A stretch of 64,000 bases of DNA from Centroberyx gerrardi (taxonomy: Eukaryota > Chordata > Actinopteri > Beryciformes > Berycidae): contig NC_136017.1 of the NCBI RefSeq assembly GCF_048128805.1, forward strand, positions 7,889,807-7,953,806. Reading direction: 5' to 3'. Numbering within the stretch: position 1 is the stretch's first letter; each line of letters begins with the position of its first letter. Shown here piece by piece: positions 10,298 to 62,400 of this stretch. The notes beneath the pieces are model-generated. The model saw nothing but the letters and a program-made list of their open reading frames with translations. It was not told the origin of the DNA and made no database searches. The position numbers and the translations under genes are program-made.

Positions 10298-10636
10298 GTC
10301 TAACAGAGATGATACGAACCCAGCAGACTGTGATGGCATCAGAAGGAGAGGATGTCCTTTTCAACTGTCAACTCACACTGTCTAAAGAAGTTCATCAAGT
10401 TACATGACGAAAGGTTTTACCAGAGGGGGACAAGAATATTGGCACCTACAATGAAGTCTTTGGCGCCAGGGTTAATTCTGACTTTCTAGGGAGAGTGGAG
10501 TTTCAAGATGCAGGACTGCAGAACTGCTCCATCGTTATCAGCAGTGTAACGAAGCAGGATGAAGGCTGCTATCGCTGTTTGTTTTACACCTATCCTGAAG
10601 GAGTCCTGGCCGGTAACACCTGCCTTAAAGTCTATG
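10298..10636 (+). CDS. IgV exon, CD200-type, with in-frame TGA
   Basis: The acceptor is CCTCCCCCAG and the donor follows TATG. It begins TEMIRTQQTV and ends TCLKVY. The framework cysteines (FNC and CYRC) and the extra CD200 cysteines are present. The strand-C Trp codon reads TGA at 10405-10407. Confidence 0.85.
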
Positions 10637-11353
10637 GTACGGTCTGGTCCTTTATATATGTGTGTGTTTGTGTGTTTGTGTGCATGTGGATATGTGTATA
10701 CAGTACGCATGTTCACAACTTCAGTGTGCAGTTAGTGTTAAAACACAGTTTCACGTTAACACAAAGGCTCGTTAACTTATAGGCCTGTATGTCTTTGCTG
10801 AGCTCTTCTTTTGTAGTCTGACAGCCTATTTCACTGCACTTACAGAGAAACATTATTTGCTGAACGTCAGTCTCCATTTTGCTATCTTCTTATTGAGATG
10901 ATTACATTTTACTGGTTTATTAATTTATCATCAATCAGATCATATCAGATTATACAAAAAGGAACTGCATGTTAAACAGAACGGCATCTCCTTTTAAAAT
11001 AAATAGTTTGGGTTTTTTATTGACAGCAGTCTCAATATTATTCCTTGAAGGAATATACTTTTAAGCTCTTTGAACAATGTATTGTTTTTTTTACAAGAAA
11101 ACACCTTTTTGTGTTCAATACTTAGTGCGTCACAATGCTAATATTAATGCGATTTTTTTTTTTTTACATCTACTAAGCATTGATTGCAAAAGCATTAGCA
11201 TACACTGTAACAAACTGGGCACACACAGGTACCATTTCAAGTAGATCAAAGAGCTTATTTTCCAAAAGCTGATGTTTTCCTTTTAGAAAATACTGTATGT
11301 AATTTGTAAAAACTTAATCCAGCGGATGTCTTTTTAATGTGTTTTCTCTACAG

Positions 11354-11668
11354 AGCATGAGCCCACACTGCACATCACTAAATCAAACTCTGGGCGGTCA
11401 CTTGTGTCCTGCTCAGCCACAAGCCGGCCTGCTCCCGCTGTAACGCTGATGGTTCCTGGACGTGACTTCAGCTCTTCAAACTACAGCACTGCCAGTGTCA
11501 CCAACGCCAACGGTACAGTCACTGTCACTGCCACCGCTGTACTGTCAGGTTTCCATGGTAACAGTACACAGGTCGGGTGTGAGGTGCGACTGTTCTCTGG
11601 CGCTTTGATGGAGGTGTTTACGACGATTTCTGAGACGATTCCTGAGGCCAGTCAGTCCTCAACTGTTG
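11354..11668 (+). CDS. IgC exon of CD200-like copy
   Basis: The acceptor CTCTACAG precedes EHEPTLHITK. The domain has SCSATSRPAPAV and a second cysteine in QVGCEV. Several N-glycosylation sequons (NYS, NGT, NST) are visible. The central tryptophan of the CD200 block (VFWKVP in human, from memory) is replaced in VTLMVP. The donor GTGAGA is phase 1. Confidence 0.85.
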
Positions 11669-12289
11669 GTGAGAAACACTTTCAATGCTACCATTTATAT
11701 ACAGATAGATTATATATTATATATAGATAGATAGATACTTGATTAATTACTTCATGATGCTGATGTTTAAAAGGTTTCTTTTTTCTTTTTTAAGGTTTGG
11801 ATAAGGAATCTGCAGTGGATGAGAGCGGTTTCAGTAAGTTTGTGTTCAAGTCGTCTCAACTTAATTTTCATATTTGATTTGTAGTTGCTTTCTTTATGAA
11901 TGTTGTGTGTGCCATATCAGCAACTGTCGTCTTTTTCTCGTAGGTGCCACTATGATCGGTATAGCGGCTGCTGTTGCTGTTGCTGGTGCTGTATTTATCA
12001 CTATGATAACAGTCGTCTCTGCCCTGATAATACAAAAGAGTAGGAACAGGTAACAGCTTCAACACAATCTTTGACTTACAGCTCTCTTACAGTTTAAACA
12101 TCAATATATTATTGTCAAATTAATAATGGAGACCATGTTTGAGCCGATCGGTAGCCTCTATCTCACATTGGTGTTATTGTTAGTGATAGAGATTATCAAA
12201 ATTAAGACCAAATTTCCCATAAACCCCATTGCTTCCTGTCGCAAAGACGATGTTGCTACTTAGGTGAACATTTTCTCTTTCGCTTTACT

Positions 12290-19654: not shown

Positions 19655-22600
19655 ATGTGTGGATCCGCCCTGCCCCTGTGTCTGCTGCTCTGGATAGTGG
19701 GACTGACTGTCTCCAGAACGCAAGGTGCCTTTATTATGCTTAGCATCCTTATCTTACTTCATTACATAAATGATTCATTGGCTCACTGATTATTTGATTG
19801 GTGTATTCTTTAAATTAAATCGACTGTAGCTCCATTTCAGGTGTTCTTAGTTGACTTTAAAGCTGCACTAGGTCATTTTGCACGGTGGCGGCCACAAATG
19901 GCAGCGAGAGGAAACTGTGTCAAGTAACATGACATCATCGTGACATCATGTTTACCAAGCCAGTCTGTGATGCTTTATACTGCAGGATAACAAACAGATG
20001 AGAGAGATGTAATGTTGGTGAGTCCAGCTTTCTCTGGACGGAGCGCTGCTCACTGCTGTTTAGAAGACAGTTTGGATTTCAGTTTTAAAATTCAATTTGT
20101 TGCTTCCTGTGGGTGGAGAAGTGACCGTACCAACACCAGAGTTTTATTTGGGCAAATAGAGCAAATCGACATTGTCTCAATTAGTAGAGATGGGATGCTC
20201 TTCTCTATTTCAGCCCCATGGGTGTGTTTTCACATAAAACATCTTGCCCAGTGCAGCTTTAAAACGTCAAGCTCTCCTCACTTCTTTGAAATTGATATGC
20301 AAACACGTAACCACATGACATGATGGATACCAATTACCGACTCTGCTGCCTGCGCATGTGTGTGCCAGGCGAGGTCATAGCTCCTGCCAGTCTGCGTGCC
20401 ACGGCGGGTCATCCCTTCACGCTCGGCTGTAACATCACCATGGGAACGCACGACACCGTCCGGCAGGTGCGCTGGCTCAACATGCGCGACCAGGTGCTGC
20501 TGGCGTATCAGCCGGGCGCGCCGGTCCGCATCACCGAGCGGCAGCCCGACGTGGAGCTCACCCCGTCCCACAACGACTCCAGCTCCATCACCATCAAGAG
20601 GGTGCGGCCGGACAACGAGGGCTGCTACCGCTGCGTCTTCGATGTTTACCCCAGCGGGACGCAAGAAGGACAGACCTGTCTCAGCATCACAGGTGAGCTC
20701 GGCTTTTCTGAATCTAGCAGCTGCTGAAGAGCAAGACACTTCCACTCCAGGAGTACTGTTCATATTATTATTTTCTTATTCTTATTATGAATTAGAGAAC
20801 CCCTAACAATAGAACAGTTTTGTGTCTGTTGTTAGTCCAGATGCTTTAATCCAGGCACTTCCAAACCCCAGCTTGTCTTCAGTAAGCTGTTTGAGTGCTG
20901 CAGCTCACGTGACATTTGAACTTTTGTTCTTTATTCATTGAAGACAAAGACTCCTACAAGTGTGTTTACATTTGGAAGCAAGCCATGTAGTTTCTAAGCA
21001 GCTCAGCTGTTTCTCCATCTCTGACCTGGCAACTTGTCATGAGCAGGGTCACAGAGAATGTTTGTGTGGCTCACCAGTCCCCAGAATGCCTTGTGAAACA
21101 GGAAGTAGTAGAGGCAAAGTCAAAGCTCGCCCACCCAGCCAGCCACGGTGCATCCTGTTGTTACCACTGAACACACACACGTGCACACACATTTGCACAC
21201 ACATTTGCACACACACACACTCCCCTTTGATTACTACCAGACCCCTCCTTGTTACCCGTGCTCCAACACATAATGAATAGTCCTGTAAAGTTTTTAATTG
21301 TATACATTTTGATGCGTTTGTACATTCCAAATTCTTGTCTGACGCCAGCACAAATGAATCCAATATCTGTACCTGCTGCTCACATACATGTAACATCCAA
21401 CCACGCTTTCACATACGGCCTTCTCTGTCTTTACAGTAGCTGTTGATATGGGCAGCACATCCAGCAGCAGTACAAAGAAAAATAGTGGTGGTATAATTAG
21501 GATTAGCTGTGAGCGCGAACGGTTCCTCTTATCTGGTTTTTCCGCCTCTGTCCCAGGGAAAGTGGGCACGGACGGCAACAAGACGGCGGTGAGCGGGAAG
21601 CCGGCCACCCTGTCCTGCTGGTACAGCCTGCCGGAGAGGGTGCGACAGGTGCTGTGGAGGAAGACGGCCGAGCAGGGCGACACGGCCAGCGTGGCGTCCT
21701 ACGCCGCGCGCGGCCAGCCCGCCGTGGAGGAGGCCTTCCGCGGCCGGGTGAGCCTGAGCCGCTCCCTGGGCGACACGCAGCTGACCGTCCAGCGGGTCAG
21801 CACCGAGGACGAGGCCTGCTACACCTGCGAGTTCCACACCTTCCCAGAAGGCACCAGGAGCGCCACCGCATGCCTCTCTGTGTATGGTGAGTCTGGTCTT
21901 CTTTCTGTCTTTCCTTTCTGTCTTTCCAAACTTTGTTTATTTTGAGTTTTCCACACATGAATCAACAATACAAGAGCACTCATACTTTTTCTTTCTTTCT
22001 TTCCTTCTTTCCTTCTTTCTTTCTTTCTTTCTTTCTTTCTTTCCTTCTTTCTTTCTTCCTTCCTCCCTCCCTTCCTCCCTTCCTTCCTAGGATCTCTTTA
22101 CGCCCAGGTAGACTAACCTTTCGAGAGAACACACTAATAAAAAAGTACAAATATACAAAAACAGCTTCCCTAGATGCTCCATGGACAAAATCATCATTCT
22201 ACAAAAACTGTGTAATACTAAATTTAAACCCAGTGATCACTGACCATAAGTTTTAGGTACCAAGTAGCTTTAGGAGGCACCAAGTAGCTTTAGGAGGCTT
22301 ACTCCATCAAGATGCCTCTCGATAAGAGGTTTGCTTGCCACATACATGTGTGAATCTTAGGATAACATTCTTTGAACTGCATGTATCCTTGAACAGGATG
22401 TTGAACATCCGACCTGCTCACTCATCGTAAGCCGCTCTGGATATGAGCCGAAGCTAAATGCCTTAAATGCAAACTAAATGTAATGGTGAGTGTATGGAGA
22501 CTGATGGTTCTTTGGAGAGGCGCTTACAGTAAATTGGGATCCTGTTGTTGTTTTGGATCAAGAATTTGTGGGTGATGAGATAGATTTGGCTCCATTTTTA

Positions 22601-23246
22601 TTTGTAATTTGCATCATGGTGAGACAATTTAAACACCTAAGAACAAAAATAAGTCTGTGAAGAGGAAAATCTGTCTTATGAACTTACAAAAGGTGAACAT
22701 AGAGATCTTTCTATTACCAGACTACATGCATTCTGTGTATTTTCTCCTCCCTGGGTCATTTAAGGGCCACGCGCTTTGACACTGTGGATCTTTTCTAATT
22801 ATTTTCCGGATGGTCTTGACACAAACTGGTGATATACTTGAGAGGCTGAGAGGAAATGTTGTGAGTCAATGAGGTGTGTGTTCCTGCCTGTGAGTGTGTG
22901 CGTGCACTCGTCCTACATTTAGCACAGGAAAGGGAAGCACCGCGTGTAAAGAAAGCGCTGGCGGCCCCGCGGTGAGAGTTACTGGAGTGGGTCATTAAAC
23001 GACCGTCCTGACCCGCTCTGGAGACTCACCGCTGCGCTTTACGTCCCTTCCCACTACTTAACCCCGTCCCCTTTTTCCCTCTCAGTGCCGCTACTGTGCT
23101 GCGGAGCTGCGAACCACAGTGTTTGCTCAATGTCGTTCATGCCGGTCCGACAAAAGCTTCACCTCCAAGTGATTTTTACTCAGTCTTACAAGTCCCAAGT
23201 GTGTGAAAAACGTCCCGAAAGTGTGACCGGCTGTTGATCTTCCTCT

Positions 23247-23293
<47 letters not shown>

Positions 23294-26204
23294 GGGAGTG
23301 ATAATGTTGGCAGAGGGAGGGGTGTCATTGAGGGGAAAGGGGTGATTAATTTGGGTGAAAGCCCGGGGGATGAGTGGCTCACTGTTTCCCTAGACACAAA
23401 GCTTCTGTGTGTGTGTGTGTGTGTGTGTGTGCGTGCGTGCGTATGCTTATGCATACTTCTCCTTGCCCTGCTAAACAAGCTTTGCTTTTGTCTACCCTGA
23501 CAGAACCAAAGATCCACACACACACACACACACACTCTCTCTCACACACACACACATACACACACAGAAAGTAAAAGCTGCTCTTCCTCTGTTCTCTGTC
23601 TATAGCAGAGTTTTGTTTCCAGGCCAGCCAGTCAGGGAAGGACATGTGTCTTTGTGTCCGAGGGACGGAGAGATTGACCGGCGGTGCGCTCTGTCTCTCC
23701 ATCTCTGTCATGCCGTCACGTCTGTTGTCTGCAGGCAGCGCGCTCGGACAGACTAAATGGACGACAGGATCAGAAAGGAAATGCAACAAAAGATCAATAT
23801 TAAAAATGACAGTTGAGAGAATAACAATACTCATTAGACACGTGCGGTGCCCAAAATTCGTAACTCATTGCAATTGGATTGAAAAGTTGAATTTATTTTT
23901 ATAGTTCCGCCAAATTCTAGACCAGATCTGATGCTGTAATTCAAGAAATATTCGTTTTTTACTGTATTGCTTTTATGCATAAATATGTTGGATGCCACTT
24001 GGTATATCACCTGTCGTATTGTTATTGTAATAATGATAATAAACTTAATAAACTTTATTTAGAGAGCACTTTAACCAAAGTTACAAAGTGCTTCACAACA
24101 AACTACAAGTGCAAGGAATAAAACATGTAGTGCAAATAAATACATAATGCACTGTAAAAACACATACACAAACAAATGACAATAAATAAACAAAAATACA
24201 TAAAAAAATTTAAATTCAATAATAAATGAGGCATCTTGGCTTAAAGCAGGATTAAAGGTAAGCTTTTCGCTAAAAGTACGTTTTAAGAGTGAAATGACAG
24301 GCTAGCTAAGTCGTATTGTTGTCCAGTATACTTCACAGCACCTGTACTAAAAATGAATGCACACCTGGAATTGCCACGCATAAAAGCAGTCATCAAATGT
24401 AAACACCGAAGTCTTTCCGTAACATTTGTTTCCCCTCCTACAGTTTTGCCCAAACCAGAGGTGACCTATGTGACCTTGTCCTCGGGCGTCATCGAGGCCA
24501 ACTGCAGCGCCCAGTCCCGTCCGGCGGCAGAGATCATGTGGAACGTGGGGGGGGACAACCGGACGCTGGGACCGCCCGTCACCTCCGCCTACGAGCAGGG
24601 GGACGGCACCACGCTGGTGACGAGCACGCTGCTCCTCCAATCAGGGCTGCTCAGTGAGCTGTCCGTCAAGTGCATCGTGCATCACCAGGGCCTGGAGAAA
24701 CCCGTCACCGTGTCCCTCAATACGAGTGGTGAGGAGCTCAGATGTGTGTTGTTCTAATGGGAGAAATGTCCGACCACAACCTAAAGTCTCTCAGCACTAA
24801 TGGTGTTGGGCTCTGCTATATGTTATATATGTTTATTACACCGCTTTGTTGAATTCTCAGTTCTGATTGGCTGTACCTGCATAACAGATATCTTATCGTA
24901 TCGTAAGTCCGTTTCCATTTTGTTGATTTCTAACCAAATCAGCTCGCTACACCCTGTGCCAAAAAAACGTTACTCCTCCATTTTTTTGCGGAAGGTTGTA
25001 AATTAGCTTGAAATAAAATTATTTTAAATCAATATTGCGTATCAAATGTCCAGGGTGCCGGTCATTATTCATAGTATTCTGTTACATAATCACACGGCCA
25101 TGTTGGTAGGAAAATAACAGGTGATTGTAATGAATTAACAGGTGATTATAATCAAATTACAGCCATTGAGTTGTGTGTATGGAAAAGCACCATACTGGTA
25201 GAAAATGCATGAGACACCATAGGAATAATATGAATATGAAAATTAGCCGCTTCATGGCGATCAAGACCCTGATCCACTTCCAGTTGCGGTCTTCAATCAG
25301 CGTGTCAGGGATTATTTTGCAGTAAGGACCGGCTCGGTAGATTAAACCTTACATATGTCAAAACCTTTACAGAGCCAGTGGGATGAAATTGTATGTATTG
25401 GTGTAACAGAATGATCTGAGACCATTTCTCCTCTATGAGACTAAAAACACTGGGTGTCTAGAGGTTAGAGAAGTGGGCTTGTGACCCTGAAAGTTGTCGG
25501 TTCAAATAACGTTCTCCCACGACCGGCGAGATGCCCCTTGACTAAAATACTCGACCCCCAGTTGCTCCAGTGAAGCTGCTCAGTGGCCAAAAGTAGAAGA
25601 TTCACTCAGCAGATCTCAGTGTGTTTATCTGTATGAATTTGTATTGCCTTCCCTGGAGAAATAAAACATTTAATTAAAAAAAGAAACGGCAATAAGCCAA
25701 GAAGAAGTGATAGTGATCTGCTGGTGATATCAGGGCCTGTCCTGTCTCGGGCCAAGCCTCTTCTTCCCAATATTACCTCTGTCAATCTGATGATGCATGG
25801 GTAACATCATGTGCCTGTCAGGAATGGAAGTAATACATGATAGGTCATCATTTTTGGCAAAACTACCCACCTGCATTGCCTCAAAATGTAGCCAAAATGA
25901 GTTTAATCAGTGTTACAGTTACACAGCAACGCCCATTCTCGTCCTTCTTCCATTTAGTGCTGAGGTGCAGTGAAATGAAGGGTTTTGTTTCCACACGTGT
26001 ATTCTCAGCTATTTTAGTCCGGGGTAATTATGGCTGCTTTGAAGGAGCACTAAATCCTGTCATGTTACAGTATACGGGAAAAGAGTACAGTTACTTACCT
26101 CATGAGAAAAGCCTTATTCTCAAACCACATCGCCTCACATGTTTTGTCCAGATGCCACACATTTCACAACATAGTTCTAGAACATATACAGTATTGTGAA
26201 CTGA

Positions 26205-40009: not shown

Positions 40010-40539
40010 AAACTGACTTTGGTAGAGTCCCCCCCCCCCCCCCCCACCGATTGTGATGTCAGTTCAAAATGGCCGGCATGGGAAGTAAGTGGAAGTCGTT
40101 ACTTTGTGCCATCTTGCCATAGATTAGCACCTCCACCATTTAATTGGAGTGTAGTCCAAAATCCCTATGGAAAATATGAATGGGCTTTTTGAAAAATGTC
40201 AAAATAAGGGCCATCTTGAATGGCTACCCAGGAGATATCCTATTATATTTTGTTCCATGGGTGAAAATACATCCATAGCATCAGCTTTGTGAATTTTGAT
40301 CGTTAGTTACTTTTAATATAGATTTTTGCTAACAAAATGATAGTGATCGGGGAAGGCGGACTACAATATTTTTCCAATTTCCCTTAATCACTTCTCGTCT
40401 CGTCCTGACTGTGTTGTATATTCAAATTATTATGATTTTCATAGCGTTGCATTGAATCCGGGGGAAAGGGGGGGGGGGGGGTCATTTTGTGATAAGAGGG
40501 GTGTATTTTTACATACAAATCTTGCCTAGTGCCACTTTA
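40010..40539. mobile_element. TTAA-type element forming the 3' end of btla-1
   Basis: It runs from CTTAAACTGACTTTGGTAGA to CTTGCCTAGTGCCACTTTAA, collinear with 47609-48136. The right end matches the MITE end family seen at 19857-20262. It includes a C17 run near 40029-40046 and a G run near 40467. The stop codon region of the BTLA tail lies at its inner edge. Confidence 0.45.
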
Positions 40540-40606
40540 AGACTTGCGGATAGCTGCATACTCTGAACTCTCCTCCTTCCGTCTCGGAGGATGAGTAGAA
40601 GCTTCT
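40537..40606 (-). pseudogene. Orphaned end of btla-1 tail exon (ITSM-like part)
   Basis: The minus strand still reads ESSEYAAIRKS and then TAA (stop 40537-40539), the counterpart of the last residues of btla-2. It is cut off from the rest of the exon by about 300 bp of foreign sequence (about 40607-40910) and by the hAT-like element at 40934-41521. Confidence 0.8.
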
Positions 40607-40933
40607 GCTGCTGTGTCTTTAAGGTTCATTAATCTTTAAGGTTCATTAATATTAATGACCCCTCTGTTCTGATTGGTCAACCGTTTCAAGAGTGAAACGT
40701 GAGACACCACAGACCCGGCAGAACAGGCAGTGACAGGTAGGGAAAACTCTCTGGTAATAAACAATGACAACCGCTCAACCACTTTGAAAATTCAGTTCAG
40801 TGTGTGACAGATTGGTTTCAGCCCTATCCATTTCGGGTCGCCTGTACCATGAGTGTGTTCAGGTTTGTTCAAATTTAGATTTGTGTTAGTGGCGGATCCG
40901 GTTAGTATCACAGTGGTTATTGTCTCCTGAGAC

Positions 40934-41521
40934 CAGAAGTGTGACCAAGTCATTTTTGCTCGAGTCCCAAGTCAGTCTCAAGTTGAGGCACATGTCTCAA
41001 GTCAAGTCTCAAGTCTAAATGTAGAACACCAAGTCAAGTCCATGTCATTAATGTCAAGTCTCAAGTCTAAATGTAGAGCACCAAGTCAAGTCAGAACAAT
41101 TCAAGAGTCTAGTATCAATTTAATATCTTAAAGAAAACTAAATCTATTGGACTTTTCAATGCAATATGGTTTTAATAGGATAAAAAATTGGTAAGAGCAT
41201 CATGAGTTTGATTTCTGTAATCAGTTTCAACTTCAATAAATTCAATCATTCCATACAAATTCAGAAAACAGAATTTAAGTTCAGTCATCTGGTCGAACAA
41301 ATCTCATCACTTTCAATCTAAGTCATTTACACAAACACAAGATCTTTTGTCAAGACTTTAGAAACCGTTTCAAGTCATCAAAGTACAAGTCAGAGTCAAG
41401 TCCCAAGTCACCAGAACTCCAATTGATGCATGAAGTTAAATTAAAATGACTAAAAAGTGACTCAAAAAGTGACTCAAGTCTGACTCAAGTCCAAGTCATG
41501 CGACTTGAGTCCCCACCTCTG
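40934..41521. mobile_element. hAT-like MITE inserted in btla-1 tail exon
   Basis: The ends are CAGAAGTGTG and CCCACCTCTG (terminal inverted repeats of the CAGAGGTGGG type). Flanking 8-bp direct repeats CCTGAGAC (40926-40933) and CCTGAGAT (41522-41529) are the size expected for hAT target duplications. The interior is full of CAAGTCAAGTCTCAAGTC repeats. The intact paralogue at 48345 shows the uninterrupted exon. Confidence 0.9.
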
Positions 41522-44279
41522 CCTGAGATTGATTGGGCTCCAAGCATGCTGTGTTTTTCCGGTCGGGCCACTGAGGCCACACGTTCTCATAGACACATTC
41601 AGGACCTCTGCTGGGCAGGGCATGATGGGAAGTGGGGCTTCCTCTTGGGGGAGAATGGAGGGTGGAGTACGGGGATTGTTGTTCGGTCATGTGAATTGAC
41701 ATGTACTGTAAACATACATAAAATATATACTGTACATACAAATATTTTACAGAAAAATGTTTAAAGGAATAAAAACTGGATGAAATGGCTAAGCAGGTTT
41801 GGACTGTATCTCTGTTTTACCTGATTTTCTGATTGCCTCTCTTTCTTGGATTCCCCTGATGGACAAATCGGATTATCATCAGGCAAAATCATTTAATGTT
41901 TTCAGAGTCATGGCCATAAATATATACTGCATGGCATACTTATTCTTATTAATATGTGGCATTTTATTTGGGAAAAGAGAATTTTCCCCTGGGGAATAAA
42001 AGAAATCAAAACACCTTACCTTTACACCGTCGCATTGATAGGACAGATATAATTATCACTATGATGACAAGCGGCATGATCCCAGCAGCGATGTACACAT
42101 ACGGCCACAGTGTCTCCATAAAGTCATGATCCTGACTTATCGTGCTGTCTGCAAGAGGAAGAGCATGTTTGACTCAACATGAATGCAAATGCAGGGCTGC
42201 TGAATTTAATGTTGTTGTGTTCATGTCCATGTTCTTGTCACTGTTTGCCCCGGCACCTATTGCACACTCAGCCGTCCCGGTGGGGGATCCCTCTTTGACT
42301 CGGCCCGCCCAAGGTTTCTTCCATTTTTTTTCCTAATAAGGTTTTCTTGGGAGTTTTTCCCCGTATGCTTCGAGGGTCTAAGGCTGGTGGTGCCGGGTAG
42401 GTTAGGCTATGTAGAATAGGCAGGCTGTTATGTCTTGCTAAAATCTGTGTGTCTTGTGCTTCGTTCTGCTTCCTTGTGTTTGTCCTATATCATTCTGTTC
42501 TATGGTTGATTGTTGATCAGTTAGATCTAGTTAGGCTCATTCTCTGTAAAGTCCTTTGAGACATGCTTGTGATAAAGGGCGATAGATAACGATAAAATGT
42601 AGGATTCATATAACACCTCTACTGCATGTGAGCAATACAGGGCATGAGGAACACCAATATCACTGTGAGAAAGTGTGTGAACTTTTCTTCCTTGTTTCAT
42701 TCTTCCATGTAACTGTGGTGAGCACAACACTATCTGAAAAATATTAAAATTGCTTATATAGCCTATCCTAAATCTGATTAGGTAAAAAATTGCACAAAAA
42801 TATCAGACTTTTTACACTTTCAAATGAAACCAGAATGAAGCATTGCATGTCATGATTCGCTAGCAGTTAGAAATGTCGGCTGTGCAATGTGAACAGGAAT
42901 TTCCTGGACCAGTACAGTACAGTGTAGGTGGATAAGTCCTGCTGTCATACTTACCAGAGACATAGACCTTGATAGCATGACTCACTTGCCCTCCACCATG
43001 ACACTGATATACACCAGAGTCGCTTGTGAGCATGTTTGTGAAAACCAGATACAATATCCCTTCCAAATTTCCTGAAATTTCCCACTCTGTTGTGATGTGA
43101 GTGGAACTGTTGAAATGGATGGGGGTACAACTTTGATCAAGTTTAGACCAGGAGATTGTTGGTGGTGAATTGTTGCAGAAAACAACTGGGCAGTGAATCC
43201 TGAGGTTTTCTCCAAGTGAAGCGTTGTAAACCGTGCCGCGGCGTACTTTAAGTTGCAGCTCACAGTCAGAATCTTGACCTGCATGAGGAAAAATGACAAC
43301 AAACACAGAGTATAAATGACTGGTCAATACATTCTCATTTGAAACCTTGATACCACAGCTAATGATGAGAGAATATGAAATTAGGGTTTGAAACAAGTGA
43401 ACAATGACATAATAACATCTTTAGAACTAGACTGTAAAACTCAGTAATACAAAAAGAGAGTTTGTTGTAGCGAAAGGTTGAAAGTAGTTGTTTGTTCGTT
43501 TCTTTAAACATCACATGATGCCAAAGCTTTTATTGAGAAAATCACACAAATATTCGAAGGATACATTTGAAGCCCAGTGCCTTCTTAACAACATCGTTCA
43601 AGTGACATGGGAAGGGGAAAGTTGTGTATGGGAGACGCCTGCTCTGTCCCTTTTAAAATGTTATGAACTTTTATGGCAATATACTTGCAGTTGTACACCC
43701 AGTCCAAATCATTTTGAGTGTGAATGGGTACACATCACCTGCAAGTGCACAACCTTTTCCCCTTGCAATATTGCAACACAGAGTATTTAGATACAGGGTT
43801 CCTGCACAGTTTCAATTACAAAATTCCAGACTTTTCCCAGACCTTAATTTGTTGATATAAAGATTTTAGTTGGTGTTCAGTCTGACTTTCGTCTTGCTCC
43901 AACTAACTCAGAATATAAATATCAGAATATGTCAGATGAGAGGGGTCTAAAACCACAAACTGTATCTGTATGTATATTGGGACAGTACAATCTTTTTTCC
44001 ATAATTTTCCAGACTTTTCAAGACCTGGAAATGACCAAATTATTTTACTCTACATTTCCAGACTTTCTAGACCTGTGTAACATTTCAAACATTTTTCAAC
44101 ATTTTTCACCATTCATCTGAAAAAAACAAACCTGACATGATTCTTTATCTGAAGGCTTAACCTCCTGTTTTATAAGACAAATTTGTAATTAACAATAACT
44201 TACTATCAGCGTCCAAGGTGAGAAGGAGCGCCGCTAAGACGGACACATGCAGGACGGTCCAGCAGCGGTTAGGCCTCAT
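41496..44279 (-). CDS. btla: B- and T-lymphocyte attenuator-like, tail truncated by TE (btla-1)
   Basis: Exons on the minus strand: 44204-44279 (signal peptide, MRPNRCWTVLHVSVLAALLL), 42955-43278 (Ig), 42020-42148 (stalk and TM), 41821-41855 and 41496-41705 (tail), giving 257 residues. The single Ig domain matches BTLA: DSDCELQLKV, IHCPVVFC, ISWSKL and SGVYQC. TM is IAAGIMPLVIIVIIISVL. The tail keeps PYSTL (Tyr 201) and CVYENV (Tyr 227), then runs into the inserted hAT-like element and stops at TGA 41496-41498 after QVA. The ITIM and ITSM present in the neighbour are lost. BTLA in mammals binds HVEM and recruits SHP phosphatases through those motifs. All splice sites are intact, so the gene may be expressed as a signalling-poor receptor. 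Confidence 0.85.
42228..42600. mobile_element. Dispersed repeat in btla-1 intron
   Basis: It contains CCGTCCCGGTGGGGGATCCC, CAAGGTTTCTTCCATTTTTT and a GTAAAGTCCTTTGAGACATG end, a familiar fish retroposon-type end. The corresponding intron of btla-2 (49620-49690) lacks it, so it inserted after the duplication or was lost there. Confidence 0.6.
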
Positions 44280-47608: not shown

Positions 47609-48136
47609 TCTTAAAGGGACTTTGGTAGAGTTTCCCCCAGATTGTGATGTAGTAAGTAATTGGAAGTCGTTATTTTTTACACAGTCTTGTATGCCATAGA
47701 TTAGCATCTCCACCATTTGTGTGTAGCCTAGTCCAAAATCCTTATGGAAAATATGAATGGGCTTTATGAAAAATGCTAAAATAAGGGCTGTCTTGAATGG
47801 ATACCCACAAGGTATGCTATATTTCATTCCATGGGTGACAATACATCCACTAGTATCAGCTTTGTGAATTTTGATCTTTTTGTTACTTTTAATATAGGCT
47901 AGATTTTTGCTAACGAAATGCTAATGATTGGGGAAAGTGGACTACAAAAGCAAAAAGGAAGTAATGAGCGACTTCCCTAAATTACTTCTCGTCTCGTCCT
48001 GACTGTGTTGTCTACATTCAAATTATTAAGATTTCCATAGCGTTGCACTGAATAGTTATTCGGGGGGGAATGGACGGGCACTTTGTGATAAGAGGGGTGT
48101 ATTTTTACATACAAATCTTGCCTAGCGCAGCTTTAA
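47609..48136. mobile_element. TTAA-type element forming the 3' end of btla-2
   Basis: It runs from CTTAAAGGGACTTTGGTAGA to CTTGCCTAGCGCAGCTTTAA. The right end reads into the coding exon: on the minus strand the BTLA stop codon TAA is part of TTAAAGCTGCGCTAGGCAAG, the same end motif as the MITE at 19857-20262. It was present before the unit duplicated. Confidence 0.45.
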
Positions 48137-51100
48137 GGCACGCGGATAGCTGCATACTCTGAACTCTCTTCCATCGGTCTCGGAGGCCGAGCAGAAGCCC
48201 CTGGTGGCATCTGGTGGTTGAGAGCAGCGTACACGACAGGACTCTCCTCTTCCTCCTCCGCCCCCTTTCTTCCTTTCTTCCTCTTTCTTTCTCCTTCCTG
48301 TTTCTTCTTGCCGTAGACGTGGTCATTGTCTCCCGAGACTGTCGTCTGATTGGGCTCCAAGCATGCTGTGTTTTTCCGGTCGGGTGGGCGAGGCGGCGTG
48401 TTGTCGTAGATACATTCAGGACCTCTGCTGGGCAGGGCATGATGGGAAGTGGAGCTTCCTCTTGGGGGAGGTTGGAGGCAGGGGTGTGCGGATGGTTGTT
48501 CGGTCATGGGAATTGCCATGTACTGTAAACATACATCAAAAATATGTTACAGAAAAATGTTTAAAGGAATAAAAACTGGATGAAATGGCTATGCAGGTTT
48601 GGACTGTATCTCTGTTTTACCTGATTTTCTGTTTGCCTCTCTTTCTTGGATTCCCCTGCAAGATGGACAAATCAGATTATCATCAGGCAAAATCAATTAC
48701 TGTTTTCAGGATCATGATCATGAATATGCACTGCATGGCATATTTATTCTTATTACTTTAAGGTAGGGTGACCAGATGTCCCCATTTTCCGGGACAGTCC
48801 CTGGATTTGGTGCTTTGTCCCCAGCTGGCACTGTCCCCGGAAATGTCCCCAGATTTCCCCCTCTGTGGACGGCATTACTATCTGCTGATTGTCATTTTTA
48901 CCTCAGGACCATGGGGATTTTATCCTGTCTGGCTGTCTGGATGGGATTAGCATTGCAGGACCACATTGGTAATGTAGTCTAGTACATTATGATTTCAGTG
49001 CAATCTGGACAAAACTCTAATAAAAACTTCTCCTATAAATTACTAAGGGGGTTCTCAGTTCGTTGAAAAACAGTAATTATTAACATTGATCCGCATGGGA
49101 TTGAAACCACTGATTCACTCCAGTTACCAGCCTGCTAGTAGCCTAATATTAATTGTCAGTGATTTTCTCCCGGCTATCCAGGTAAAATTTCTGGCTGAAA
49201 TTACCTACCTACTGTATTGTATGAGCGAACTCTGACGTCCTGGGGTCATTTTAATCCCATCTGGATTGACATTTGGTGTTTCACACAATTACTGACTACC
49301 AACAATTACCGCACTGCCATCTATATTACCAGAACCACAAATGTCCCCAAATTTGCTCCCTAAAACCTGGTCACCTTACTTTAAGGCATTTTATCTGGGA
49401 AAAGATAGTTTCCCCTAAGGAATCAAAGAAGTATGTAAAAAATCAAAACATCTCACCTTTACACCCTCGCATTGATAGGACAGATATAATTATCACTATG
49501 ATGACAAGCGCCATGATCCCAGCAGCGATGTACACATACGGCAGTGTCTCCATAAAGTCACGATCCTGACTTATCGTGCTGTCTGCAAGAGGAAGAGCAT
49601 GTTTGACTCAACATGAATGCAGGGTTGCTGTATTTAAATTTAAATACTGGGCTACAAAATTTGAAAAGAACAATAAAATAACACCTCTACTGCATGTGAG
49701 CAATACAGGGCATGTGGAACACCAATATCACTGTGAGAAAGTGTGTGAACTTTTCTTACTTGTTTCATTCTTCCATGTAACTGTAACTGTGGTGAGCTCA
49801 ACACTATCTGAAAAATATTAAATATTGCTTATATATCCTAGATCAGATTGGGTAAAACATGAGGGGAATTTAATATCACAGACTTTTTATACTTTGAAAT
49901 GAATCCAGAATGAAACACTGCATTTTGTCAGTTTGTCATTCACCAGCAGTTAGAAATGTCGGCTGTGCAATGTGAACAGGAATTTCCTGGACCAGTACAG
50001 TACAGTGTAGGTGGATAAGTCCTGCTGTCATACTTACCAGAGACATAGACGGTGACAGAATGACTCACTTGCCCTCCACCATGACACTGATATACACCAG
50101 AGTCGCTTGTGAGCATGTTTGTGAAAACCAGATACAATATCCCTTCCAAATTTCCTGAAATTTCCCACTCTGTTGTGATGTGAGTGGAACTGTTGAAATG
50201 GATGGGGGTAAAACTTTGATCAAGTTTAGACCAGGAGATTGTTGGTGGTGAATTGTTGCAGAAAACAACTGGGCAGTGAATCCTGAGGTTTTCTCCAAGT
50301 GAAGCGTTGTAAACCGTGCCGCGGCGTACTTTAAGTTGTAGCTCACAGTCAGAATCTTGACCTGCATGAGGAAAAATGACAACAAACACAGAGTATAAAT
50401 GACTGGTCAAAATATCCTCACCTGGTACCTACAGTATACAGCATAGCAAGTAAGTATGATACTAGCTAATGATGAGAGAATATGAAATTAGATTTTGAAA
50501 CCAATGAACAATAACATAACATCTTTAGAACTACACTGTTAGAAGAGGGAGTACGGAGACAGCAGTTATCAGGTTCTGAAACACCATAAGCAGTGCTATG
50601 TAGCCATTGAAACACTGGAATTGGTGTTTGGGGAGTGCTTGAGTTGAAACACTAATATCAGTGTTTGGGAGCACTTTAAACACAATATTTTGGTTTTGAA
50701 ACACAAAACATTGTAAATCAATACTAAAGTGAAGGTTTCGGAGCTATACCCAGTTTTAAGTGTTTCAATACACATGAGTTTGCAGACACACAAAGAGTGT
50801 TTTGAAAGTTTGAAAGTCAGTTTATACGAGACCTTTACTGTTTGTTGCTGGCCTGTGTGCCTAGTGGCCAATCATTTTTTATTTTCAACTGTTATTCAAA
50901 TGAATAACAGTTGAAAATAAGCCTTTCTGTTGTCTTTCAGAGTATCACCAATGGATATTGCAGCTCTGACACTTGTCTTCTTTTAAGAGTACATTTTTGC
51001 CTTTATTGGACAGATCCAAATTGAGTTAGACAGGAAAGACTGGGAAGACATGCAGCAAAGGTACTGGACCAGATTCAAACCCAGGACATTGCATTTACAT

Positions 51101-54100: not shown

Positions 54101-55142
54101 ACATCCTCCTTTTGTGGAAGAAATGAACAGAAATTTGCATTCTTAGCGTCTTTTGGTTTCGCCAGTTTAACAGCCATGCATGATAGACCTTCCTTCGTTT
54201 TAAAGCCAAGTAAGGCTGTACATTATTATATGGTATGCTGTGACATCAGGCTTGACCAAGTCTGATTGTTTTTCCTGCCTGATACACCTTGAGTATAGGA
54301 ATCAAATGCAGAATCACACTTCAAGCTTACTCACTTTCAACCTAATGTATTTCTGTTATGACTTTTAATGCTGTGTGACACTGGTACTTGATCAGCAAGT
54401 AAATACGCCAGACTGAGCCAGTGGTTGTGTATGGGAGACGACTGTGCGCCTGCTCTGTCCCATTTAAGACTTTATGAACTGCCAACATACTTGCAGTTGT
54501 ACACTCAGTCCAAATCACATCAACTGAAAGCACACAACTTTTTCAGAAATTAGGTCTACAACCATTGCAATATTGCAACACAGAGTATTTAGATACAGGG
54601 TTCCTGCACAGTTTCAATTACAAAATATCAGACTTTTTCCAGACCTTAATTTGTTAAGATTACGATTTTGGCAGTCTGACAGTCGTCTTGCTCCGACTAA
54701 CTCTGCCATATCACTCTACAGATAATATCAGAATATGTCAGATGAGAGGGATCTAAAACCACAAACTGTATCCGTATGTATATTGGGACAGTACAATATT
54801 TTTCCATAATTTTCCAAACTTTTTTGTGTAATTTCTAGACTTTTCAAGACCTGGAAATTACCAAATTATTTTACTATAAATTTACAGACTTTCCAGACCT
54901 GTGTAGAAAACCTGTAGATAACATTTCAAAGCATCATTCATCTGAAAACTGAAACAACCTGACACTATTCTTTATCTGAGGGCTTCAGTCAATTCATTAT
55001 TGACCTACAAAGTCTACTACAGAGCGCCTGTAGTATAAGAGAAATTTGTGATAAACAATAACTTACTATCAGCGTCCAGGGTGAGAAGGAGAGCCGCTAA
55101 GACGGACACATGCAGGACGGTCCAGCAGCAGTTAGGCCTCAT
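48133..55142 (-). CDS. btla: B- and T-lymphocyte attenuator-like, complete (btla-2)
   Basis: Exons on the minus strand: 55067-55142 (signal peptide), 50038-50361 (Ig, residues 26-133), 49457-49582 (stalk and TM, to 175), 48621-48655 (GESKKERQTENQ) and 48133-48522 (tail), giving 316 residues. The Ig domain has DSDCELQLKV, IHCPVVFC, ISWSKL and SGVYQC, as in BTLA. The tail carries four tyrosine sites in the BTLA order: CIYDNT (Tyr 226, Grb2-type YxN), HVYGKK (Tyr 257), VVYAALNH (Tyr 285, ITIM) and SEYAAI (Tyr 310, ITSM-like with Ser for Thr). A Lys/Arg-rich and a Glu-rich stretch separate the second and third. By family it is an inhibitory receptor of lymphocytes for HVEM acting through SHP-1/SHP-2. 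Intron 1 is swollen to 4.7 kb by a CACTA-like element. Confidence 0.92.
48764..49378. mobile_element. hAT-like MITE with perfect 8-bp TSD
   Basis: The ends TAGGGTGACCAG and CTGGTCACCTTA are inverted repeats, flanked on both sides by CTTTAAGG (48756-48763 and 49379-49386). The equivalent intron of btla-1 (about 41940-41965) lacks it. No transposase frame. Confidence 0.85.
50879..50920. repeat. 42-bp near-perfect palindrome
   Basis: Two 20-bp arms (left arm TTATTTTCAACTGTTATTCA) with a 2-bp AA centre lie inside the CACTA-like element. Confidence 0.95.
50990..51137 (-). mobile_element. tRNA-derived SINE
   Basis: On the minus strand: GTCCTGGTGGCTCAGTGGTC (box A region), GGGTTTGAATCTGG (box B), then GCATGTCTTCCCAGTCTTTC and a GTCCAATAAAGGCAAAAA end. 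Confidence 0.75.
52480..52990. repeat. Subterminal AAACACCAT-ATGGTGTTT repeats
   Basis: Spaced about 30-60 bp apart are variants such as AAACACTATAGTGGTTTTTG, AAACACCATAATGGTGTTTG and AAACACCATAGTGGTGTTTT, each a small palindrome. They probably mark transposase binding regions of the surrounding element. Confidence 0.75.
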
Positions 55143-56445: not shown

Positions 56446-59400
56446 ATGGCGGAATACCTGGCGTCCATTTTCGGTACAGAGAAAGACAAGTAAGTTTAAT
56501 TTTAGTGTTTTATTTCTGTGTTCATGTAAACGGTGCGTTGGGTACAAAGTGTGCACGTGGTAGTGCGGCTTTGCTGCCAGCCGTGGCTTCTCTGAGGCTT
56601 TGTTTGTAGTTGTAGCAGCCTTGAATGTCCCAGTCAAGCTAGCGAGAGATAGCTAACGCATTGAATGAAATCCAGGAAGGCATCCAGCTAACCCGCTGCT
56701 ACAATGTGGAGTCAGTTTGCGCCTAACCAACTATCGAGTGGTTTTTATTTAAGTAGTCCTCCAATCTGTGTGTACAAACTTAAAATCTGGCTACATGCTG
56801 CTCTTTACCATTCATAAATCAGTCACGTAACTCTTAAGTTTGTTAATTAGCTTGTTAGCAAACTGGCTAGCGGCGCCTAGGCAGGCGGTTTGTTTTGTTT
56901 CCAGTGGCCGCCGGAGTGCAGCAGAAGGCATCCTGTATATTTTCAGCTCATTAGACAGTGAACTAGTGCTCACAGCACCTGGGCCAATGTGTTAAATAAA
57001 TGCAAACTTTGTTGTCATCTTCACACATTGATCTTATACGTTTCTTTCAGGGTCAATTGTTCATTCTATTTCAAAATTGGAGCGTGTCGACATGGGGACC
57101 GCTGCTCTAGATTGCACAACAAGCCCACCTTCAGCCAGGTGAGTATCCCACCAATGTTATTCTTTTCAATGAGAGTGTTTCTCTATGGGAACTATGTCAA
57201 AACGTTTAAAATTATATCACTGTTGATGAAATGTTTTGACCACCAGCCACATTATCACATTTCATGTAGTTGATCTAACCAGTATACTTGTTATGAACAC
57301 TTTATATAGAGATGCTCTATTTTAGAAGGATATGCCCTATTGACCTAATTGTTACATTTCTCAAAGATGTATTTAAACAAGATAAAAAAATATTATTTAT
57401 CATATTTCATCTCTCAGAGATATCCAAATTTCATTTGGCATAAGAGCTAGCAGTCAATGAGTCTGATATTTTCCTCTAAGCGATAAGTGGAGTACTTTTA
57501 TGTTTTGTGAAACTCACTTAAAATTCACATAATAGAAAGTTTCACAGAGGGAAGAATCTAGTATTGAAATTTGCAATTTAAATTAAAACAAAAGATTAGA
57601 ATTATATAATGAATATAGGCTATAAAGTACAACAAAAATCAATCAAAAGGTTTGTCTCAACGTTGGAGTGTTTATCTGCACTGAGATGTTCTTTAAAAGT
57701 TTGTTATATTCAATTTTAGGACAGAATGTGAAGTCAATCGGTAACCTTTACTGAATGCAGCTTTATTTGTGTTGAATGTAAAGAATATGATTGTGTTCAT
57801 TTATGCAAAGTCAGGCCAAATCTTAGTGCGGTCTGTACATGATTCTTATGCTCTCATTGCTCCAAGCCCATGTGAATTGTTTGGTTAACATGTCACTAAT
57901 TACTTGTGAAAAGACCCATACTCTGTCAGTCCTTTTCTAATTTGCATTGTCATCTTCTAATGCTAGTAGTTGTATTTCAGGTCCCACGTTTTGCAGTTAT
58001 GAACTCCCTTAATTTTGTGTTTTGTTCTTTTTCAGCAAAGTCACACTTTTAAGCAGCCTGCGAAGAGGGGCGGGGGTGGTTTACTGCACATTTTAGTTGT
58101 TGAAAGTCTGAAAGTTTTTCTGAAAAAGAATGTTCAAGTGGTTAAAAATGTGGCACATCCTACCATCTATAAACGCACGCTAATGCAGACTTCCTGGAAC
58201 CCATTTCACAGGCCAATATAACTCGACTTTGGTTTTAAGAGAATGTCAGGGTGTGAGGCTGAGCTTAACCCCTAGGTGGACCACAAGTAACCAGAGACCC
58301 CTGGATCTTCACTCTCTTTTGTTCCTCTTATTTGCAAACAGCGTCTATAGATCTTGCACTATTTTAAGATCTAAAGAAGCTAGTTGAGTGTAGAGCACAG
58401 CCAAATTTACATCAGAACAAGTACAGAATTAGGCATTCATCAAACAATCCTCTCTGACCATGTATCTTTTTATTTTTCCCTCTGCAGACCATCTTGATTC
58501 AAAACATCTACCGTAATCCCCAAAACAGTGCACAGACGGCCGACGCCTCTCGCTGTAAGTCCAAAGATTTGTTAGCCTCTGAGGTGCAGAAGTCCCTCCT
58601 TTCTCCCTCCCCGGTTCCTAAAAAAAATAGCCCACATTACAGCAGGCTGGGTGTGAGGGACTGCCTCAGCCCTGTTAGCGGGAGACCCAACTTTGCTTCT
58701 ACACAACATGACCCCATTATCGTCCAAATATCCCAAAGCAAATATGCTCGGTCAGTTATGGCTAGTTGTAGTTGTCTACTTCAGGGTTTATTTCTCTGGC
58801 CTCACGCACCTCTTCGGTCGCTTACTACCAACAAAAAGCATAGACAAAACAAACGCTTGACCGCTAATCCTTGCTCTATCTGTTTTTCCACCTAAATTTG
58901 CATTAGAAGAGCAGAAGTTTAGGACGGTTTAGCTGAGCGCTCACATGATTTAGGTTGTAGGCTACTTAGACCCGTGTGTCGTAGGCGTGAACAGTAACGA
59001 TGTTGAGCCCAGTCTAGCAGAGCTGACGCACAGCCTCTCGTACAGGTAGGTGTGTGTGTGTGTGTGATGGGTTATGGAGCCTTCGGTCCGACTCACTGAC
59101 TGTGGCACTGTTCTGCTCTGTTGTGCTGACATTTGATTTCTGTTTCCAAACAGGGATTTTAGAATTGGCCAGGCTGTTTCCCTTTGGGGCCTGTATTTAT
59201 TAAACTATGTGTCCATTGGATTTGAAAGGATTGGATTCATCATACCATTGTCTTGTATATTAAGGCTCTTGGGAAATGAGTGTTGGTGGAGGATTTCATC
59301 CGACCGGTGAGAACTGGTCAGATGTCCTTTATCAGCACCCTCACTCTGAGAGGCTTGATTTAAAAAAGACATAGGTATCAAATTCAGTTATTGTGAAATT

Positions 59401-62400
59401 CAGCAAACATCCATGAACTCCTTAATGAATTATTTTGTGAATTCATCTCCCCAAAGATAAAAAAAATGGCTGGTTCTGAGATCCTTGTGTTTGCAGCTTC
59501 ATCCGATGCCCTGGCAGAATTCACCTGAAAGAAATTCCCTTCTCTTTCAGCGGTTGTGCACGTCTTGATTTTTCAAGCACCCAACACACAATTAGCTGTC
59601 CCCCCAGGAGCTGTAGTGACTAAGGACCGCAAAAGAACTGACTTAAAATATCTAATCACAACTTTTTCCCTCCCCATCTCCATATTTTGCTTGATTTGTG
59701 TCACAAAAGTGTACGTTTTGTATTTCAGACCATTGCCCTCTTGAACATTTACCGTAACCCTCAAAACTCTGCCCAGTCTGCTGATGGTTTACACTGTAAG
59801 TTCTCCCTTCATATGCAGGACCCTGCGGCACTGACTGCACTTAATTTACTACATCACACCTCCCCACATTGAAAAAGGCTAATTTGGCCCAGTGTAGGAA
59901 CATGTACTCTAGGCTCCTCTGACTCATCCCATCTTTTCCTGTATATAAAACAACTAAATCTTTGATATTTTCCCCCCTCCAAAAAACTTTTGTCTTTATT
60001 TAGCCTAAATGTTAACTGGCCACATGCTGTTTTGCGTGTTTTGCTGGCCTAACTCAAAGTACTTGAGTAAATGTGATACAATAATGTGCACAGCTTTGGC
60101 TTAGACCCTTCATTCCTTGAGTTTTGCTGATGTGAAACAGATGTGATAGACTTAAAAGCTTTAATTTACTTACTCTTGGCGTGTTATTTTGCTTTACACT
60201 TACCAGTTACTGCTTCACATTAAAGTACACAGTTTTTGCTTTCAATTCAGTGAGGCCAGGTTTCTACTAGGGCTGTCCCCAACTTAGGAAATTCTCAGTC
60301 ATCCAATAGTCAATAATTTAATGAACTAGTTGTATAGTCAACTTAATCGTTATCTTCCCACTGCAAATACATGCAATTACAGTTTTTTATCACAGAACAC
60401 CGATATACAGTATATATTTGTAAACCTTGTTCTGAACTTGTTATACTAACAAGTCTTAGTTGAGGAAAACCCTACGAACCAAACGGATGACTAAGAGGGG
60501 ACAGCTCTAGCTTTTATATTGCATCTGTGAAATAAGTTGAATAGACTGAGAAAGGCATGGGAGGGGGAAGATGTTCATTGTAGCATCTAGTAATATACAC
60601 ATACACGATTGGAAACATGATACTCATTTGTTTATGCATGCTGAGTAAATTCTATAATCTCTAACTTTAGCAGTTACAGCGACGCATCATGCTAAGCTGC
60701 TACATGTAGTTTTGTCTCTTAAAAGTTAAAGTGTAACACAGCAGATTTGAAGACTTTTCCTTTTCCAGCGCTGCTCGTCTAGCTGTGCCTTGACTAGTTT
60801 TGTTGAAATTTTGTAGGTGCCGTCAGCGATGTGGAGATGCAGGAGCATTATGACGAGTTCTTTGAGGTGAGCGACATTTTGTGCTTCTGACGTGGCTTAA
60901 TTCTACATAATTCTACGCAACGTGCCCACTCACAAGTTTGTCAGCTGTTTTTGTAATGTCCTGCTACCCCGGGGACCAAACGGGAACAAAATGACACTGA
61001 CTCAGTATTGACCCATGTTTCACTGATGTAAGAATCATGTATTAGTTTAAGAGCAAATATTTACACAGCAGGAAAAAACCACAGGCTGTCCGCATGGAAA
61101 GCAGGGGCTAAATTTCAGAGTTTAAACAAAATTGGCCTAGGTGAGAAGATGTAGCAATTTTCTTGCTTTTATTCCCTCTTAACTCTATTGTGATCTTGTC
61201 AATAGGCCTTGAATAAGAGGCTAAGATCAGTAATAATCTTAGTTTCTCAATATTTTTTTGAACTCATTTTATATAGAGAGGCTGAACACTTCCCAGCTGC
61301 TTTTGAAATGTGGTTATGCTAGAAAGGAATGCATTGAATCACGAGGCAAACTTTGGATACTCAGCCCACGTAAACATAACCTCTAATCCGATGAATAATG
61401 GAAACCTCAGAGCCAGTGAAAGACTTTATAACTTTATAGCTAAGTAGGCTCAACCTAATTCAGTATTGTTTTTTGATCTTTGCCCACAGGAAGTGTTCAC
61501 AGAGATGGAGGAGAAGTATGGAGAGGTGGAGGAGATGAACGTATGTGACAATTTGGGCGACCACCTTGTGGGCAACGTCTACGTCAAGGTTGGTGACGGA
61601 TCTGAACGTAGCTATGGGGGGCAGAAGTAAAAAAAAGGAAAGGATAAAAATGGATATGATGAAAAAATCCATGTGAATGGAATGATAAATTGTCAGGTGG
61701 TTGATGATGATTGATCAGAGGTTTCATCATGTGTGTCAGTCAGAAACCACAATCAGTGACTTTTCTGCTGTGTAGATCTATCAAATCACATTACAATTTA
61801 TCACTCAGTTTTTCAATTTGCATGGATTTTCATCTCGTTTTTTAATTTTTTATCATGTGAATGTGTTGCTACCACCACCAGTAGTTGCTGAAGTATGTGC
61901 TTCCTGTGTGTAGTTTCGTCGTGAGGAGGACGCAGAGAAAGCAGTCATGGACCTGAACAACCGCTGGTTCAACGGCCAGCCAATCCACGCAGAGCTCTCC
62001 CCCGTCACCGACTTCAGGGAAGCCTGCTGCCGCCAGTACGAAATGGGGTGAGTATCATTTGGTCTAAGGCCTCATCTGGTAGATCTGGTAGTGCCGTTAA
62101 CAACTGATAACATGGTAACTACTGGATATTGTAATAAGTTGTCGAAATGTGATATAATGTTCCTTTAAACAAGTTGAAAATGTAATAAACCCTTAATGCA
62201 ATAGATTCCTGCATAGTGTAATAACGTCACATTATTATGTTCCCATTTCTAGGGACATTTAATTACATTTTGACAAGTTGTTCCATTATCCAGCAGATAT
62301 TACATTATTACATTATCAGTTGCTACAACCCCAAGAACAACCAGTGTGTCCATCAGCAGCCATGTGTCCTGTACACATGGCTGCTGTTTTTTCTCTATAA

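What the first reader, a model, noticed from the sequence alone, without database searches (positions are those of the whole stretch)
40537..41705. A BTLA paralogue has lost its inhibitory motifs to transposable-element insertion
The tail exon of btla-1 is split by a 588-bp hAT-like element (CAGAAGTGTG/CCCACCTCTG ends, 8-bp CCTGAGAC/T repeats), and a further foreign stretch of about 300 bp replaces the ITIM segment. The reading frame enters the element and stops at 41496-41498. The neighbouring btla-2 keeps YDN, ITIM and ITSM-like motifs. The predicted btla-1 product has an intact ligand-binding domain and TM but no ITIM/ITSM, which would make it a decoy or altered-signalling receptor if expressed.
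Basis: partly seen in the sequence, partly recalled or inferred. Interest (0 to 1): 0.8.

Follow-up and report, generated by a model that had tools for sequence, protein, structure and literature searches.

The report
Immune receptor duplicate cut by transposon
In a fish genome, one of two neighbouring copies of the immune brake gene BTLA lost its inhibitory tail when repeats landed in its last exon, while its outer binding part was later copied to or from the intact neighbour; it could be a decoy receptor or a decaying gene, and RNA data would be needed to tell which.

Summary
Two tandem btla genes lie on the minus strand. In btla-1 a 588-bp non-autonomous hAT element (40934-41521, 8-bp target repeats matching 7/8) splits the tail exon, and the frame stops at 41496-41498 (257 aa; btla-2 316 aa). 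The element belongs to a high-copy family in this genome.

Corrections: the roughly 310-bp foreign stretch is a mosaic of two repeat fragments that replaced only the first ITIM (VVYAAL). DNA for the distal motif (SEYAAIRKS, stop) survives at 40537-40566, outside the open frame. The btla-1 tail has one ITIM-consensus match (SPYSTL) and YEN. The element carries a strong predicted splice donor and completes an acceptor at its target repeat; the best-scoring product still lacks both old motifs, and a weak acceptor could rejoin the distal one.

The copy is 5.2% from its family consensus; introns of the two genes differ by 10.2%, so the insertion is about as old as the duplication. The Ig exon and intron edges are nearly identical (much younger gene conversion), so an intact ectodomain does not by itself prove selection.

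A membrane decoy is plausible but not shown; a pseudogene re-seeded by conversion is about equally likely.

The parts
44204..44279 (-). btla-1 exon 1 (signal peptide, ATG 44277-44279)
   Evidence: donor ATA|GTAAGT as in btla-2
42955..43278 (-). btla-1 exon 2, Ig domain
   Evidence: PDB BTLA matches
42020..42148 (-). btla-1 exon 3, transmembrane segment
   Evidence: TM called by eye from the hydrophobic run
41821..41855 (-). btla-1 exon 4, 35-nt exon restoring phase 0
   Evidence: acceptor scores 5.9 versus 10.6 in btla-2
41522..41705 (-). btla-1 exon 5 before the insert: YMSI, SPYSTL (41658-41675), YEN (41583-41591)
41496..41498 (-). stop codon inside the hAT element
40934..41521 (.). 588-bp non-autonomous hAT element
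41522..41529 (.). target-site duplication copy CCTGAGAT
40926..40933 (.). target-site duplication copy CCTGAGAC
40927..41516 (-). possible new intron: donor GAG|GTGGGG in the terminal repeat (9.0), acceptor TCTGGTCTCAG|GAG at the target repeat (7.3)
   Evidence: prediction only
40795..40912 (.). fragment of a low-copy repeat (74-84% to four other places), part of the foreign stretch
40603..40794 (.). fragment of a high-copy repeat (91-95% in 39 of 40 other matches, 75% in one), part of the foreign stretch
40537..40602 (-). surviving end of the old tail exon: ...EESSEYAAIRKS stop (SEYAAI 40549-40566)
42862..43327 (.). gene-conversion tract shared with btla-2 (Ig exon and both intron edges)
55067..55142 (-). 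btla-2 exon 1
50038..50361 (-). btla-2 exon 2, Ig domain
49457..49582 (-). btla-2 exon 3, transmembrane
48621..48655 (-). btla-2 exon 4
48133..48522 (-). btla-2 exon 5: YDN (48400-48408), VVYAAL (48220-48237), SEYAAI (48145-48162)

Best explanation
btla-1 and btla-2 are young tandem duplicates. Soon after duplication the last exon of btla-1 was broken by a hAT insertion; a 7-bp length change and the replacement of 120 bp by a repeat mosaic also hit that exon, in an order not known. The unspliced transcript would end its frame in the element and give a 257-aa type I membrane protein with a BTLA ectodomain, TM and a short tail carrying YMSI, SPYSTL and YEN but not the two motifs that together recruit SHP1/SHP2 in human BTLA. 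Because the stop lies in the last modelled exon, nonsense-mediated decay is not expected (established knowledge). If made, it would bind the BTLA ligand without passing on the full inhibitory signal, i.e. compete with btla-2 as a membrane decoy. Shown: the structure, the element, its approximate age, the later conversion of the Ig exon. Inferred: expression, surface display, ligand binding, decoy effect.
For: Frame intact from the ATG through five exons with GT-AG introns. Human BTLA needs both ITIM and ITSM tyrosines to bind SHP1 and SHP2 (passages of PMC8631942). Soluble BTLA ectodomain can disrupt BTLA-HVEM (passages of PMC8438243). In the 747 coding nt before the insert about 5.9 disabling changes are expected without constraint at 5.2% divergence; there is none before 41530 and one 7-bp length difference at 41529/41530: P 0.003 if that is not counted, 0.019 if it is. 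Amino-acid-changing differences in exons 1-4 are fewer than intron differences (9/434 versus 108/1061). Insertion age 25/484 versus intron divergence 108/1061.
Against: The Ig exon and its intron edges were converted recently (about 1.5 changes at 188 silent sites, 19 expected), so intactness there need not mean selection. Outside the converted patches the lack of lesions is not significant: P 0.10 at 5.2%, 0.07 at 6%, 0.26 at 3% divergence, and 0.33 at 5.2% if the 7-bp difference is counted. The tail before the insert shows no sign of constraint (dN 0.177, dS 0.098). The exon 4 acceptor is weaker than in btla-2. No RNA evidence. By eye, five cysteines in the mature ectodomain against four in btla-2, so one may be unpaired.
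Confidence: 0.4

Rival explanations
1. btla-1 is a decaying pseudogene. Its good-looking ectodomain is the by-product of gene conversion from btla-2 and says nothing about use.
For: Conversion tract 43327-42862 with a 142-nt identical noncoding run when the exon between the two edges is left out (largest of 5000 shuffles 112); TM exon patch, 0 changes at about 68 silent sites (P 0.0007; 0.015 for the 39 intron sites alone); unconstrained tail; three changes in one exon; weaker exon 4 acceptor.
Against: Start, splice and frame features of exons 1-4 are intact. btla-1 has a tryptophan just before the TM and a cysteine in the Ig domain, absent from btla-2, that have near-counterparts (one or two residues off) in other BTLA copies; this is weak evidence.
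Confidence: 0.42
2. The hAT element is spliced as an intron (41516 to 40927), giving a 295-aa receptor with a new tail encoded by the foreign stretch, or, with a weak acceptor at 40575, a tail that regains SEYAAIRKS.
For: Donor 9.0 is in the top 1% of 3832 GT sites and acceptor 7.3 in the top 5% of 4190 AG sites on that strand of the window; by its weaker site this is the best of 5381 scored paths. Removal is frame-neutral (+6 nt, my reading).
Against: The score matrix was written from memory; no branch-point or RNA test. Only 46 of 5381 paths regain SEYAAIRKS, the best with an acceptor of 2.45, below all 8 modelled acceptors.
Confidence: 0.13
3. Assembly error in the tail exon.
For: Two repeats lie side by side in the exon.
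Against: No N in the window; the element has matching target repeats and family-consistent ends; the foreign fragments match genuine repeats elsewhere. Reads were not available.
Confidence: 0.03

Closest known systems
BTLA (CD272), human and mouse, and the multiple BTLA genes of teleosts
   Same: Ig domain matches BTLA first; btla-2 has YDN, an ITIM and a distal SEYAAI in the BTLA order; multiple teleost BTLAs are reported (passage in PMC5413580; Bernard 2007 seen only as a citation).
   Different: btla-1 lacks both old motifs in its open frame; neither copy has a strict TxYxx[VI] ITSM.
Paired receptors with homogenised ectodomains (CEACAM1 and its paralogues)
   Same: Ligand-binding exons kept alike by gene conversion while cytoplasmic parts differ (passages of PMC7042247).
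   Different: By eye btla-1 has no ITAM-like tail or charged TM residue; no activating partner was looked for.
Soluble or truncated BTLA forms made by alternative splicing
   Same: Ligand binding without inhibitory signalling (passages of PMC8438243).
   Different: Here the truncation is in the DNA of one paralogue and the TM is kept.
Introners (DNA transposons acting as introns)
   Same: Terminal repeat supplies a donor and the duplicated target completes an acceptor (prediction).
   Different: One copy only, splicing unproven; [quoted passage not shown]

Membership tests
BTLA | Ig ectodomain nearest to BTLA | tested here: met
   Top five of 19 PDB matches are BTLA chains, E 2.9e-10 to 1.6e-8
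BTLA | Type I TM and YxN motif in the tail | tested here: met
   TM exon by eye; YEN in btla-1, YDN in btla-2
BTLA | ITIM followed by ITSM | tested here: not met
   btla-1 open frame has neither old motif; btla-2 has VVYAAL and SEYAAI, both ITIM-pattern, no TxYxx[VI]
BTLA | Binds HVEM | not testable with these tools
   needs a binding assay
hAT superfamily, non-autonomous | 8-bp target-site duplications | tested here: met
   7 of 8 at the window copy; 13 of 29 other copies match at 7-8 positions, the other 16 at 0-5
hAT superfamily, non-autonomous | Terminal inverted repeats of CAGxGGTG type and many copies | tested here: met
   Left end exactly CAGAGGTG in 24 of 29 other copies, right end exactly CCACCTCTG in 14 of 29 (several copies are cut or rearranged at the right end); 2217 first-look candidates
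hAT superfamily, non-autonomous | Mobilised by a hAT transposase | not tested
   no autonomous partner was searched for
Paired or decoy receptor | Ectodomain homogenised with the inhibitory copy | tested here: met
Paired or decoy receptor | Expressed, with the tail signalling differently | not testable with these tools
   no RNA or protein data

The most novel reading that the evidence does not exclude
btla-1 and btla-2 form a paired-receptor system for the BTLA ligand: gene conversion keeps the two ectodomains alike, while a hAT element, spliced as an intron or ending the reading frame, removed the SHP1/SHP2 docking pair from one copy and left a tail with YEN and a new SPYSTL motif. This would be a transposon-made decoy of an immune checkpoint in a vertebrate genome.
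Probability: 0.15. Interest if true: 0.7.

Novelty: new variant of a known kind. Interest (0 to 1): 0.42.

Why it matters
If expressed, it would be a natural experiment in which a checkpoint receptor lost its inhibitory tail but kept its ligand-binding face, next to the intact copy, with conversion having acted between the two after the loss. It makes a decoy hypothesis directly testable by RNA-seq and a binding assay. If not expressed, it is a clear warning that an intact ectodomain in a broken paralogue can come from gene conversion rather than selection.

Tried and rejected
Rejected: chance origin of the element signature (it is a high-copy family). Rejected: the idea that the ~300 bp is one insertion of one known repeat (its two parts match different repeats). 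Rejected: strong splicing that restores the distal motif. Kept open: pseudogene versus decoy. An activating paired receptor was considered and dropped: I saw no charged TM residue or ITAM pattern in the translation (by eye). dN/dS alone was not used as proof of selection because conversion depresses both rates. Of the two further BTLA-like loci in the genome, that on C10 has an intact tail; the end of that on C12 could not be resolved, so it was not used as a second tail-less case. The 11 weaker rows (E 0.1 to 5) were not followed. Aligning the three tails worked poorly outside the distal motifs and could not show whether SPYSTL is derived. Paper searches (25 of 28 listed; 13 of 13; 26 of 26; 8 of 15; 10 of 12) showed, by title and start of abstract, no report of a transposon-truncated fish BTLA; the library lacks most subscription papers, and Bernard 2007 and Hu 2023 were seen only as citations. 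Passages on BTLA in PMC11599192, PMC12151841 and PMC10499179 added nothing decisive. (introners; hAT exonisation) listed no matching fish case. No structure was predicted.

Full report
Gene models. Two btla genes lie in tandem on the minus strand. Exon edges were found from the sequence and checked by translation: btla-1 44204-44279, 42955-43278, 42020-42148, 41821-41855 and 41705 downward; btla-2 55067-55142, 50038-50361, 49457-49582, 48621-48655 and 48522-48133. The products are 257 and 316 aa. With btla-1 as query, the five best of 19 PDB matches are BTLA chains (E 2.9e-10 to 1.6e-8). Pfam gives only Ig models below their cut-offs, and weaker unrelated rows, for both.

The insert. The element is 40934-41521, 588 bp. 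In the window's own genome a DNA search scored 40 of 2217 first-look candidates; apart from the window itself and three short pieces its rows are 86-94% identical. Flanking 8-mers match at 7-8 positions in 13 of 29 other copies fetched and at 0-5 in the other 16; they match at 7 of 8 at the window copy. The frame enters the element and stops at 41496-41498.

The foreign stretch. The search with 40600-40925 gave 41 matches, one of them the window itself; nearly all of the others cover about 40633-40790, at 91-95% in 39 of 40 and 75% in one. Alignment of the 11 loci fetched shows the shared part begins near 40603 and ends near 40794. The rest, 40795-40912, matches four other places at 74-84%; the three fetched share further sequence with each other and none with the 11 loci of the first part at E 1e-10. 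In btla-2 the corresponding 120 bp (48199-48318) encode the first ITIM. The old distal end...SEYAAIRKS and stop, is still present at 40537-40602. A 7-bp length difference beside the target repeat is a third change; whether it is a loss in btla-1, and whether it came before or after the insert, is unknown.

Motifs. By the consensus quoted in PMC8631942 (passages), btla-2 has two ITIM-pattern matches and no strict ITSM; btla-1 has one ITIM-pattern match, SPYSTL, and YEN. Shuffled btla-1 tails contain such a match in 5.6% of 20,000 trials, so it may be chance. That paper reports that loss of either tyrosine of the human pair abolishes SHP1 and SHP2 binding.

Splicing. With a recalled score matrix, the eight modelled donors score 6.1-11.2 and the eight acceptors 5.9-11.8. 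The element's terminal repeat contains a donor of 9.0 (41516) and its far target repeat completes an acceptor of 7.3 (40926). Among 5381 paths with all site scores above zero, this is the best by its weaker site and gives 295 aa without the old motifs. Forty-six of 5381 regain SEYAAIRKS, the best using an acceptor of 2.45.

Timing. The window copy of the element differs from a majority consensus at 25 of 484 sites (5.2%, 95% range 3.4-7.5%); the 29 others differ at 0.6-3.1%, median 1.7%. The 29 were the nearest to the query, so their low values are biased. Introns of the two genes differ at 108 of 1061 sites (10.2%), about 5.1% per lineage (4.2-6.1%). The insertion is therefore about as old as the duplication; it is absent from btla-2. 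If parts of the introns were also converted, the duplication is older than this suggests.

Gene conversion. Across 43312-42873 the copies differ at 6 of 440 sites, with 10 of 40 and 8 of 40 just outside. Silent sites of the Ig exon with its intron edges show about 1.5 changes in 188 where 19 are expected (P 4e-7 for at most 2), and the TM exon with its edge 0 of about 68 (P 0.0007). The edges were chosen after looking. A run test on noncoding columns, the exon between the two edges left out, gives a 142-nt identical run against a maximum of 112 in 5000 shuffles. The homogenisation is therefore much younger than the insertion. Its direction is not known.

Selection. Without constraint, about 5.9 disabling changes would be expected in the 747 coding nt before the insert at 5.2% divergence. 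None lies before 41530; the 7-bp difference lies at 41529/41530. P is 0.003 leaving it out and 0.019 counting it. Restricted to exons outside the converted patches 2.3 are expected (P 0.10, or 0.33 counting it; 0.26 at 3% divergence leaving it out). The tail before the insert shows dN 0.177 and dS 0.098; its amino-acid-changing rate is not significantly different from introns (P 0.07) or from its own silent rate (P 0.60). These results neither prove nor exclude function.

Other BTLA copies. A six-frame search of the genome with btla-2 found 21 matches at E up to 10: eight in the window, one on C12 (47% over the Ig exon), one on C10 (32%) and 11 weaker ones not followed. The C12 and C10 Ig sequences also match PDB BTLA first. 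The C10 gene has YDN, LVYATL and SDYAAI in order, so a second gene of this genome has the three-motif tail; its signal exon was not sought. The C12 tail is unresolved. Both have the extra cysteine pair after the Ig tryptophan; btla-1 has a cysteine near the second of these and btla-2 neither (by eye).

Conclusion. The DNA structure is clear; the function is open between membrane decoy and pseudogene. A precedent for conversion acting on ectodomains only is CEACAM1 and its paralogues (passages of PMC7042247). Multiple teleost BTLA genes are already reported (passage of PMC5413580).

Noticed in passing
L067 5714-6052 (G000 C12, about 3748713-3749051, minus): A further BTLA-like Ig exon, closer to human BTLA (E about 1e-13) than the window copies. 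A candidate next exon runs to a stop without a clear TM or ITIM; its true end is unresolved.
   Followed up: partly
L068 about 3991-5285 (G000 C10): A third btla gene with Ig exon, TM exon and a tail with YDN, LVYATL and SDYAAI; signal exon not sought.
   Followed up: partly
window 42862-43327 and 42020-42187: Gene-conversion patches between btla-1 and btla-2.
   Followed up: yes
window 10408-11727 and 20311-24754: Several Ig-like exons. Two V-type ones match nectins best; CD200 (OX-2) is among the matches of both (E 0.011, 6.5e-8), but not among the 60 rows shown for the C2-type one. Perhaps CD200-like genes, which neighbour BTLA in mammals (recalled).
   Followed up: partly
window 56446-62054: Exons with a CCCH zinc finger (E 4e-9) and a below-cut-off RRM end, probably U2AF1 (name recalled), on the plus strand next to btla-2.
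   Followed up: partly
window 7916-8413 and 9692-10033: Remains of a DDE_Tnp_4 transposase and of a reverse transcriptase.
   Followed up: no
window 48756-49436: btla-2 intron 3 holds about 630 bp more than btla-1 here, probably another insertion.
   Followed up: no
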